Origin: Algibacter lectus
GTDB lineage: Bacteria > Bacteroidota > Bacteroidia > Flavobacteriales > Flavobacteriaceae
DNA: 64,000 nt
NCBI RefSeq assembly: GCF_900112395.1
Contig: NZ_FOLN01000010.1
Location: 1-64,000 of the forward strand
Direction of reading: 5' to 3'
Part shown: positions 1 to 609 of the stretch, piece after piece
How positions within the stretch are numbered: the first letter of the stretch is position 1
Layout of the letters: each line of letters starts with the position of its first letter
Program-made: the position numbers and the translations under genes
Notes under the pieces: generated by a model
The model's input: the letters and a program-made list of their open reading frames with translations, nothing else
Databases searched by the model: none
What the model was told of the DNA's origin: nothing

Positions 1-126
1 AAGTTTTCTAAATGCTTTAAAGCCTGAAACCTTATTTTTAAACTGATAATAATTACCATCTGAATCTGTGACATCAAAAACTAAATAACTAATGTCAATA
101 CCAAAATATTTAATATCTTTATTCAT
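1..126 (-). CDS. IS110-family transposase, N-terminal fragment (cut by window edge)
   Basis: Reading leftward from an ATG at 124-126 (complement), 42 codons stay open to the window edge. The peptide begins MNKDIKYFGIDIS and continues with a VFDVTDSDGNYYQF stretch and VSGFKAF. The GIDxS-x(3)-FDV signature is the start of the RuvC-like DEDD domain of IS110/IS1111 transposases, and the Asp in GIDIS is the first catalytic acidic residue. The rest, including the Tnp20 domain with its catalytic Ser, lies outside the window, so whether the gene is intact cannot be judged. The usual Lys-Asp after GIDIS is Tyr-Leu here. A long non-coding stretch lies upstream, as expected for the IS110 subgroup. Confidence 0.82.
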   Translation of the reverse strand, partial: MNKDIKYFGIDISYLVFDVTDSDGNYYQFKNKVSGFKAFRKL

Positions 127-180
127 AACAAATTATTTTTTTGAAAGGACATACTACGCGAGTTTCAACGACTTAAAATC

Positions 181-294
181 GAGGTCTAAAAGCCTCACAG
201 AACTGTTCGAAATCTGTGTAGAAAAGAGAGGGGATTTACAATGTTGACGAGATCTGTAGTCTCTCCGTATAAATTAACCTTATTCCTCTCTTTT
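181..294 (-). ncRNA. Candidate IS110 bridge RNA (guide RNA) region
   Basis: Three stems are visible between the transposase start and about position 295. A perfect 10-bp stem pairs AAAAGAGAGG (222-231) with CCTCTCTTTT (285-294) and encloses a 53-nt internal region that holds its own small hairpin (GAGA 249-252 with TCTC 260-263). Closer to the transposase, CACAGA (196-201) pairs with TCTGTG (213-218) around an 11-nt loop, followed by GAGG/CCTC (181-184/193-196; shares one base with the previous stem, so the two may be alternatives). Two stem-flanked loops read toward the recombinase are the layout of the target-binding and donor-binding loops of IS110 bridge RNAs. The stems are seen; the role is inferred from the family. 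RNA ends are not determined. Confidence 0.5.
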
Positions 295-609
295 GTGCTT
301 TCTATTTTATATGTTTAAATTAGTCTTTTTTATTTAAATGCTAACTTAAGAAGTATAAAAAAATAATAGGGGTTAAGTGCCAAATCCGAAAGTAAGTATA
401 TTTTAGTTTCGTACTATTCTTATACCTACTGTTGTATGTAATTAAAGAAAAATCGAGTTCGAAAGAAGAATATTAACATTCATTTAAAAAGAATTTAAAA
501 GAACACAATCACTGAATTTTAATGAATCTATAGAAATGCGTGAAAGGAGAAAATGAGCTTAAAAAACATTAGTAAGTTGAACCTATTAGATTCTTCAATA
601 TAAATAGAT
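295..609. other. Intergenic stretch between IS end and first small gene
   Basis: AT-rich sequence probably containing the outer end of the IS110 element and the promoter of the gene at 610. No gene longer than 16 codons is convincing. The only translation-like signal is an unusual AGGAG just before an ATG at 553. No terminal inverted repeat or target duplication was identified. Confidence 0.5.
553..603 (+). CDS. Possible 16-codon ORF with a Shine-Dalgarno-like GGAG
   Basis: ATG at 553 is preceded by AAAGGAGAAA, a close Shine-Dalgarno match, which is uncommon in Flavobacteriaceae. The ORF runs to TAA at 601-603, encodes 16 residues (begins MSLKNISKLN) and ends six bases before the ATG at 610. 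It may be a leader peptide coupled to the next gene, a remnant of a longer gene, or chance. Confidence 0.2.
   Translation: MSLKNISKLNLLDSSI

What the first reader, a model, noticed from the sequence alone, without database searches (positions are those of the whole stretch)
1..300. IS110 element end with a candidate bridge RNA
The transposase N-terminus (GIDIS-x(3)-FDV) is followed, on the upstream side, by a long non-coding stretch holding a perfect 10-bp stem (222-231/285-294) around an internal loop, and a second stem-loop (196-201/213-218). IS110-group elements encode a bridge RNA there whose two loops choose donor and target DNA. The sequence shows the stems; the guide role is inferred. 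It could define the target specificity of this element in this genome.
Basis: partly seen in the sequence, partly recalled or inferred. Interest (0 to 1): 0.68.

Follow-up and report, generated by a model that had tools for sequence, protein, structure and literature searches.

The report
Bridge-RNA insertion sequence targeting gene-cassette sites
The window starts inside a jumping gene of flavobacteria that appears to use its own small guide RNA to insert itself into the recombination sites separating the genes of integron-like cassette arrays.

Summary
Window 1-350 is the left end of an IS110-group insertion sequence cut by a contig end. (1) The partial frame starts a DEDD/Ser IS110 transposase; full copies in relatives match solved IS621. 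(2) The upstream non-coding stretch folds as two stem-loops with internal loops, supported by covariation: 17 of 29 pairs change on both sides, shuffled mean 5.6. (3) The first loop carries target guides that covary with real insertion sites: 184 of 234 matches over 26 distinct left guides, shuffled maximum 151. (4) The usual target is the spacer between L and R boxes of attC-like sites in tandem gene-cassette arrays; neighbouring ends obey the integron rule at 231 of 234 bases. A tyrosine recombinase lacking most of the IntI-specific stretch has such sites directly 3' of it in 11 of 15 loci examined. It belongs with IS110/IS621; in my searches attC targeting turned up only for IS1111. No transcription or activity was tested.

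The parts
1..126 (-). first 42 codons of the IS110-type DEDD transposase (cut by the contig end)
   Evidence: identical to the copy in contig 31; the 83-aa piece of that copy scores 27.2 bits for PF01548, below the cut-off of 29, while the intact relative L058 passes PF01548, PF02371 and NF033542
1..350 (-). left-end portion of the insertion sequence; terminus CTTAAG at 350-345
   Evidence: flanks diverge at this point among copies; the ends were located with a CTTAA pattern, and 10 records without it were dropped; window reading
154..294 (-). bridge RNA, two stem-loops (5' end at the 294 side)
   Evidence: alignment A3 and covariation; coordinates
222..294 (-). stem-loop 1, target-binding loop: pairs 292-285/231-224, 279-276/236-233, 263-260/252-249
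265..274 (-). left target guide ATTTATACGG
   Evidence: covaries with left target over 26 distinct guides, 184/234 vs shuffled mean 121.6, max 151
239..247 (-). right target guide TCAACATTG (CAACA pairs with TGTTG of the R box)
   Evidence: 89 of 97 copies have TGTT at the right target; among the variants L102, L134 and L144/L146 follow the guide, L130 and L154 do not
154..221 (-). stem-loop 2, donor-binding loop: pairs 221-218/157-154, 212-209/166-163, 197-193/184-180
199..208 (-). left donor guide GAACAGTTCT (matches the element's own right end CACAGTACT/CACAGTTCT)
   Evidence: 155/200 vs 144.9 shuffled, 3 of 20000 shuffles as high; position -8 agrees 20/20, position -3 only 13/20
169..179 (-). 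right donor guide ATTTTAAGTCG (TTAAG pairs with CTTAA of the left end)
   Evidence: complementarity only; left end almost invariant, so no covariation test
351..360 (-). left target flank TTTTATACTT (L box side of the attC-like site)
351..438 (+). remainder of the attC-like site interrupted by the element (R' box GTTGTATG at 431-438)
   Evidence: weak site model R1 hit 342-439, 29.2 bits, E 0.0043; reading

Best explanation
This is the left end of an IS110-group (IS621-like) insertion sequence whose leader encodes a bridge RNA. Inferred mechanism: the circular element and its RuvC/Ser recombinase use loop 1 of the RNA to pair with a target (left guide TATACGG-type = L box of an attC-like site; right guide CAACA = complement of the TGTTR of the R box) and loop 2 to pair with the element's own joined ends, and insert in one orientation between the L and R boxes of attC-like sites in integron-like cassette arrays of Flavobacteriaceae. 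Shown here: transposase family, RNA fold by covariation, guide-target covariation, target sites and their cassette logic, fixed orientation. Inferred: transcription of the RNA, RNA-protein complex, circular intermediate, activity of this cut copy.
For: Transposase (intact relative L058): PF01548 + PF02371, NF033542, E = 7.7e-34 to IS621 8wt6 and 3e-34 to ISCro4 9t56; D11, E52, D94, D97 and S237 invariant in 11 of 11 aligned (catalytic roles recalled). RNA: 98.3% of cells paired vs 47-56% when slid; 17 of 29 pairs with both-side change vs 5.6 shuffled, 0/500. Target guide: 184/234 vs 121.6; over 94 distinct guide-target rows 83 have 0-1 mismatches at -8..-3. Within genome G002, 4 of 4 copies with guide ATATACACGG sit in targets with C at -5 and 6 of 6 with guide ATTTATACGG in targets with T at -5; at the other differing position (-8) 7 of 10 agree. 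Right target TGTT in 89 of 97. Donor loop. A site ends at the left end in 37 of 67 named-locus copies, and all 102 site hits in the 80 named loci lie on one strand. Cassette rule 231/234.
Against: No expression or activity data. Single-sequence fold energy is not exceptional (z = 0.13). No Rfam family matched. The common unoccupied sites read TATAC-NN-T-GTTR with no CT (GGT 41, GTT 8, TGT 3), while both element ends carry CTT, so the shared CT core that IS621 reads is not visible. 30 of 67 named copies have no site recognised by model R1 at their left end. 11 of 94 guide-target rows have two or more mismatches at -8..-3; worst are L137 (6, probably misaligned), L122 (4) and L104 (3). Guide position -1 agrees in only 10 of 26. 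L130 and L154 have another right target without a changed guide.
Confidence: 0.88

Rival explanations
1. The non-coding stretch is a structured leader that regulates transposase expression (attenuator or translational control), and site choice is made by the protein.
For: Structured, upstream of the start codon, on the coding strand; fold energy unremarkable.
Against: Loop letters change in step with the target between near-identical elements: 10 of 10 copies in one genome at position -5 and 26 distinct guides across relatives; leader function would not predict this.
Confidence: 0.06
2. The element recognises the folded single-stranded attC hairpin, as integron integrases do, rather than a sequence read by RNA.
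For: Many targets are foldable attC-like sites; orientation is fixed.
Against: Variants follow guide letters: L038/L021, L134, L144, L068_2239 and L102 sit in other sequences that match their own guides wholly or in part.
Confidence: 0.03
3. The 'attC-like sites' are dispersed repeats (REP/MITE-like) without a recombination role, and the element simply targets an abundant repeat, as IS621 does with REP.
For: Some sites are solitary (e.g. G000 C18, C21, C26); the recombinase is not a canonical IntI; 4 of 15 recombinase loci show no site.
Against: Tandem one-gene units, and the first bases of a unit are the complement of its own terminal site (231/234); sites directly 3' of the recombinase gene and on its strand in 11 of 15 loci.
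Confidence: 0.07

Closest known systems
IS621 / IS110 group with bridge RNA (PMC11208160, section 6 and passages read; structure paper PMC11208158 seen only in a search listing)
   Same: Transposase homologous over residues 1-315 of 323; RNA upstream of tnp; first loop target, second loop donor; 5' side of each loop matches the left side (bottom-strand pairing), 3' side the right side (top-strand pairing).
   Different: Usual target is an attC-like L/R spacer instead of REP; no CT dinucleotide in the common unoccupied targets; right target guide appears to pair about 5 nt, against a four-base guide in the IS621 analysis.
IS1111-attC group, e.g. ISKpn4, ISPst6 (Tetu & Holmes 2008 and Post & Hall 2009, known to me only through passages and citations in PMC11187229)
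   Same: Inserts at one defined place in attC sites of gene cassettes; RNA-guided (seekRNA).
   Different: Those are IS1111 type (RNA usually downstream of tnp, subterminal inverted repeats, guide order reversed relative to IS110). Here the RNA is upstream, guide order is left-then-right, and the longest end-to-end inverted match in the one copy tested is TAAAAAA.
Integron gene-cassette arrays and attC sites
   Same: Tandem one-gene cassettes, ~136-nt terminal site with R-L...L-R boxes, R'' complementary to the start of its own cassette.
   Different: Recombinase scores below the IntI model (205 vs cut-off 265), with about 21 residues where the model has positions 180-240; it passes the XerA/integron-integrase model NF040815 instead; it lies on the same strand as, and upstream of, the sites. 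Spirochaete IntIs are also reported in reverse orientation (PMC9668308, passage).

Membership tests
IS110 family transposase | DEDD (RuvC) domain plus Transposase_20 domain | tested here: met
   PF01548 63.1 bits, PF02371 82.9 bits, NF033542 200 > 140 on relative L058; the window holds only the first 42 aa of the same protein, and an 83-aa piece alone scores 27.2 < 29
IS110 family transposase | D/E/D/D and serine conserved | tested here: met
   D11, E52, D94, D97, S237 invariant in 11 of 11; assignment to catalytic roles recalled
IS110 group (not IS1111) | long non-coding region upstream of tnp | tested here: met
   194-277 nt between left end and start codon in 105 copies; right end 32 nt after the stop in the G002 copies with intact frame printed
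IS110 group (not IS1111) | no 11-13 bp subterminal inverted repeats | tested here: met
   longest match between the ends is TAAAAAA; one copy tested
Bridge RNA (IS621 type) | two stem-loops with internal loops, conserved by covariation | tested here: met
Bridge RNA (IS621 type) | loop 1 guides complementary to both sides of the target, covarying | tested here: met
   left guide; right guide supported by few variants (L102, L134, L144/146), two variants against (L130, L154)
Bridge RNA (IS621 type) | loop 2 guides complementary to the element's ends | tested here: met
   left donor guide covaries at -8, not at -3; right donor guide complementary but not testable by covariation
Bridge RNA (IS621 type) | shared CT core in target and donor, read by all four guides | tested here: not met
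   common unoccupied sites are TATAC-NN-T-GTTR; the left guide is not followed by CT. CT is at both element ends
Bridge RNA (IS621 type) | RNA is made and bound by the recombinase | not testable with these tools
   no expression data
IS1111-attC group | RNA downstream of tnp and subterminal inverted repeats | tested here: not met
Integron (cassette array with attC) | cassette start complementary to own attC R'' | tested here: met
   39 neighbouring pairs, 231/234, shuffled mean 86.6, max 125; some cassettes repeat, so pairs are not all independent
Integron (IntI-based) | IntI integrase with the IntI-specific additional domain | tested here: not met
   own genome: no match over the TIGR02249 cut-off; array recombinase 205.2 vs 265 with model positions 180-240 skipped

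The most novel reading that the evidence does not exclude
Flavobacteriaceae carry an integron-like system that my paper searches did not find described (most listed papers not opened): attC-like cassette arrays headed by a co-oriented XerA-type recombinase without the IntI-specific domain. An IS110-group lineage has specialised, through its bridge RNA, to read the two halves of that recombinase's site, rewriting its guides as site lineages diverge, convergently with IS1111-attC; and it may tolerate a non-matching core dinucleotide.
Probability: 0.55. Interest if true: 0.78.

Novelty: new variant of a known kind. Interest (0 to 1): 0.6.

Why it matters
It is a natural retargeting series: one recombinase scaffold with many different target loops, most found in a matching site, which shows which bridge-RNA letters choose the target. 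Because the target is the recombination site of gene cassettes, the element can interrupt or freeze cassette exchange. It also points to abundant cassette arrays in a group where IntegronFinder 2.0 named a single complete integron in Bacteroidetes proper, in Salinibacter ruber M1 (PMC9024848, passages).

Tried and rejected
Rfam on the window start: no match up to E = 1; Rfam at gathering cut-offs on four loci with unusual targets and on two arrays: no match. Single-sequence folding: no excess stability of the whole region. First donor-guide test used a pattern that found the wrong place and gave a null result (60 of 90, shuffled mean 57.6, 687 of 5000 shuffles as high); replaced. First cassette-rule test picked the wrong AAC and gave 105 of 240 (shuffled mean 66.2); corrected. 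First right-target count mis-parsed some copies (TGTT in 78 of 97); corrected (89 of 97). A CT core in the target was expected from IS621 and not found. That L102 lies in the 3' end of a group II intron is recalled from its sequence only; Rfam did not confirm it (the site is split there), and no reverse-transcriptase frame was noticed beside it (by eye).

Dropped rows: of 138 records, those under 50% identity and 10 without a recognisable left end were left out and duplicates merged, giving 105 copies; the common start CTTAA is therefore partly by selection. The guide test takes the first listed element for each of 26 distinct guides. The donor test used 95 of 105 copies, merged to 20 combinations. 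Alignment A3 holds 46 of 77 distinct leaders: 42 of the 64 anchored plus 4 of the 9 that missed the anchor; several with inserted hairpins or long tails were left out. A2 used 34 of 37 sites. One search used 60 hits chosen. The named set is the best 80 of 334 related stretches. The 35 sites in the window's genome are a lower bound: 150 of 4695 first-look candidates were scored.

Full report
WHAT IS THERE. The window is the start of contig C10 of a 4.8-Mb draft genome. Its first 350 bases are the left end of an insertion sequence that continues past the contig end; five such ends were found in the genome, all at contig ends, as expected for a repeat that breaks assembly. The partial minus-strand frame (126->1) is the start of a 323-aa transposase. 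Copies in same-genus genomes (10 in G002, 7 in G001; two of the G002 copies have broken frames) include intact ones; L058 matches Pfam DEDD_Tnp_IS110 and Transposase_20, NCBIfam IS110, and in the PDB, at E <= 0.001, only ISCro4 and IS621 transposases. An 83-aa piece from this genome scores just below the DEDD_Tnp_IS110 cut-off on its own (27.2 vs 29). One same-genus genome, G003, has a contig of exactly the length of an Algibacter miyuki contig (1,459,866), so the host is probably in the same genus as that species.

THE ELEMENT. 105 distinct copies come from unnamed relatives and named records (best 80 of 334 kept; by record title mostly Flavobacteriaceae). Their left ends were located by a CTTAA pattern and 10 records without it were dropped, so the common start is partly by selection; flank comparison among G001 and G002 copies shows the same boundary. 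The right end AGT[A/T][C/T]TT was found in 97 of 105. The common unoccupied sites in the loci read TATAC-NN-T-GTTR (GGT 41, GTT 8, TGT 3); occupied ones read TATAC-NN|CTTAAG...GTACTT|T-GTTR. Insertion is therefore between NN and T, without visible duplication. Two tandem junctions (L104, L083) read AGTACTTCTTAAG.

THE RNA. The stretch between left end and start codon was aligned for 46 of 77 distinct leaders. RNAalifold finds two stem-loops, each with an internal loop, 29 pairs, 17 with changes on both sides that keep the pair. Against shuffles: 98.3% of cells paired (92.5 shuffled), 17 pairs with both-side change (5.6), none of 500 shuffles as high; one measure, further pair types, is not above shuffles (27 vs 25.9, 154 of 500); slid structures pair 47-56%. 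Related sequences inflate such counts, but the apical helix of loop 1 alone shows A-U/G-C exchange in 11, 15 and 21 sequences at three pairs. The energy of the single window sequence is ordinary (z 0.13).

THE GUIDES. Near the apical helix of loop 1, on its 5' side, lie ten letters that largely equal the left target. Taking the first listed element for each of 26 distinct guides, 184 of 234 positions -9..-1 agree with the element's own target; shuffling targets gives 121.6 on average and at most 151 in 20,000. Agreement is highest at -8 to -3 (21-25 of 26) and low at -1 (10 of 26). Over 94 distinct guide-target rows, 55 have no and 28 one mismatch at -8..-3; 11 have two or more, of which L137 (6, likely misaligned), L122 (4) and L104 (3) are worst. 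Examples of rewritten guides, guide then target: ATATAGCCAT/TTATAGCCAT (L022), TGTTAAGCAT/GTTTAAGCAT (L144), GGTCTACCGT/CATCTACCAT (L021), TTTTGTATAG/TCTTGTATAA (L068). In G002 two guide alleles occur; 4 of 4 ATATACACGG copies lie in targets with C at -5 and 6 of 6 ATTTATACGG copies in targets with T, one in 210 by chance for that position; at the other differing position, -8, 7 of 10 agree. The 3' side of loop 1, CAACA, complements TGTTG; 89 of 97 copies have TGTT there. The other eight: L102 (TGGTG, guide CACCA) and L134 (GGA, guide TCC) follow their guides, L068_2239 only in part, L130 and L154 do not, L083 is a tandem junction, L060 has a site one base shorter, L084 reads N. L146, with TGTTTTT, has guide AAACA. 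Loop 2 matches the element's own right end: 155 of 200 vs 144.9 shuffled, 3 of 20,000 as high; the variable position -8 agrees in 20 of 20 guide-end combinations, position -3 in 13 of 20. The window copy has guide ATTTATACGG and target TTTTATACTT.

THE TARGET. The flanks are ~136-nt sites that recur in tandem with about one gene per unit; in L065, 8 of 10 non-transposase frames of 60 aa or more lie on one strand. In 39 neighbouring pairs (under 1,200 nt apart, second site unoccupied; from 60 sites) the six letters after GTT at the end of one site are the reverse complement of the letters before AAC in the next: 231 of 234, 36 perfect, shuffled mean 86.6, maximum 125 in 10,000; some cassettes recur, so pairs are not all independent. 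That is the rule of integron cassettes: attC R'' is complementary to the start of its own cassette (recalled). A covariance model of 34 sites finds at least 35 in the window's genome at E <= 0.01 (150 of 4695 candidates scored), many near contig ends, and a weak one at window 342-439 (E 0.0043). A site ends at the element's left end in 37 of 67 named copies with enough flank; several of the other 30 have a TATAC-type flank, others a different one. All 102 site hits in the 80 named loci lie on the strand opposite to the transposase.

THE RECOMBINASE OF THE ARRAYS. Nothing in the genome reaches the IntI cut-off. A 375-aa tyrosine recombinase in contig C13 stands just before two sites; it passes NF040815 (XerA/integron integrase, 234 > 220) and scores 205 against 265 for integrase_gron, with model positions 180-240 bridged by about 21 residues. 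Homologues were found in 39 of 40 genomes searched, many probably ordinary Xer proteins. I fetched 15 loci around strong homologues (34-100% identity); 11 have sites, in all 11 on the recombinase's strand and 3' of it; L203, L204, L207 and L209 have none by this model, L204 and L207 being cut by a contig end just 3' of the gene. That it recombines the sites is inference.

COMPARED WITH WHAT IS KNOWN. PMC11208160 (section 6 and passages read) describes the same RNA layout for IS621 and predicts bridge RNAs in 85.7% of IS110 elements, so a bridge RNA here is expected. PMC11187229 (passages) describes ISKpn4 and ISPst6, IS1111 types that target attC. The term 'IS110-attC' was in no paper found, 'IS1111-attC' in 7; 18 papers hold IS110, attC and integron together, of which I opened two. 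Searches for IS110 + Flavobacteri + bridge RNA and for Flavobacteriaceae + integron + gene cassette + tyrosine recombinase returned none; attC sites + Flavobacteri + integron + Bacteroidetes returned one, not opened. PMC9024848 (passages) names one complete integron in Bacteroidetes proper, in Salinibacter; PMC8618304 (one passage) lists Bacteroidota among phyla with integrons. The library holds only open-licence PMC papers, so absence there is weak evidence.

VERDICT. A well-supported IS110 bridge-RNA element with an attC-like target: new variant of a known kind. The one IS621 feature that fails, a CT core in the target, is the main open point.

Noticed in passing
L195 11682-12806 (G000 contig C13); also L196, L197, L198, L200-L202, L205, L206, L208, L210: XerA-type tyrosine recombinase without most of the IntI-specific stretch, followed on its own strand by attC-like sites; possibly an unrecorded integron type in Flavobacteriaceae. 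The IntI-stretch test was made on the C13 protein only.
   Followed up: partly
L104 about 2589-2618; L083 after 3469: Tandem junctions AGTACTTCTTAAG where one element's right end meets another left end; may be the circle-junction sequence or insertion at an occupied end.
   Followed up: no
window 350-339 and other copies with left end CTTAAGTTAGC: The left end carries GTTAGC, which resembles an R box next to the L box of the split site, so an occupied site might keep a pseudo-recombination site; other copies have GTTTAC instead.
   Followed up: no
occupied and unoccupied sites: GT at the two bases before the element is about as common as GG in occupied sites (28+5 vs 32+3) but rarer in unoccupied ones (GTT 8 vs GGT 41+2); a hint at target preference or at how the crossover is resolved.
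   Followed up: no
L102 2260-2294 and 3505-3560 (Zobellia amurskyensis): This copy's guides are changed on both sides and its target looks like the 3' end of a group II intron (recalled motif, not confirmed by Rfam).
   Followed up: partly
L085 and L092, right side of loop 1: The right target guide region is replaced by an inserted hairpin (TCAATCCCGAAGC..TCGGGA) although the copies still sit in TGTT targets.
   Followed up: no
L154 and L130, right flank: Right target begins CTTAAG / CTTAAT instead of TGTTR although the guide is the usual CAACATTG.
   Followed up: no
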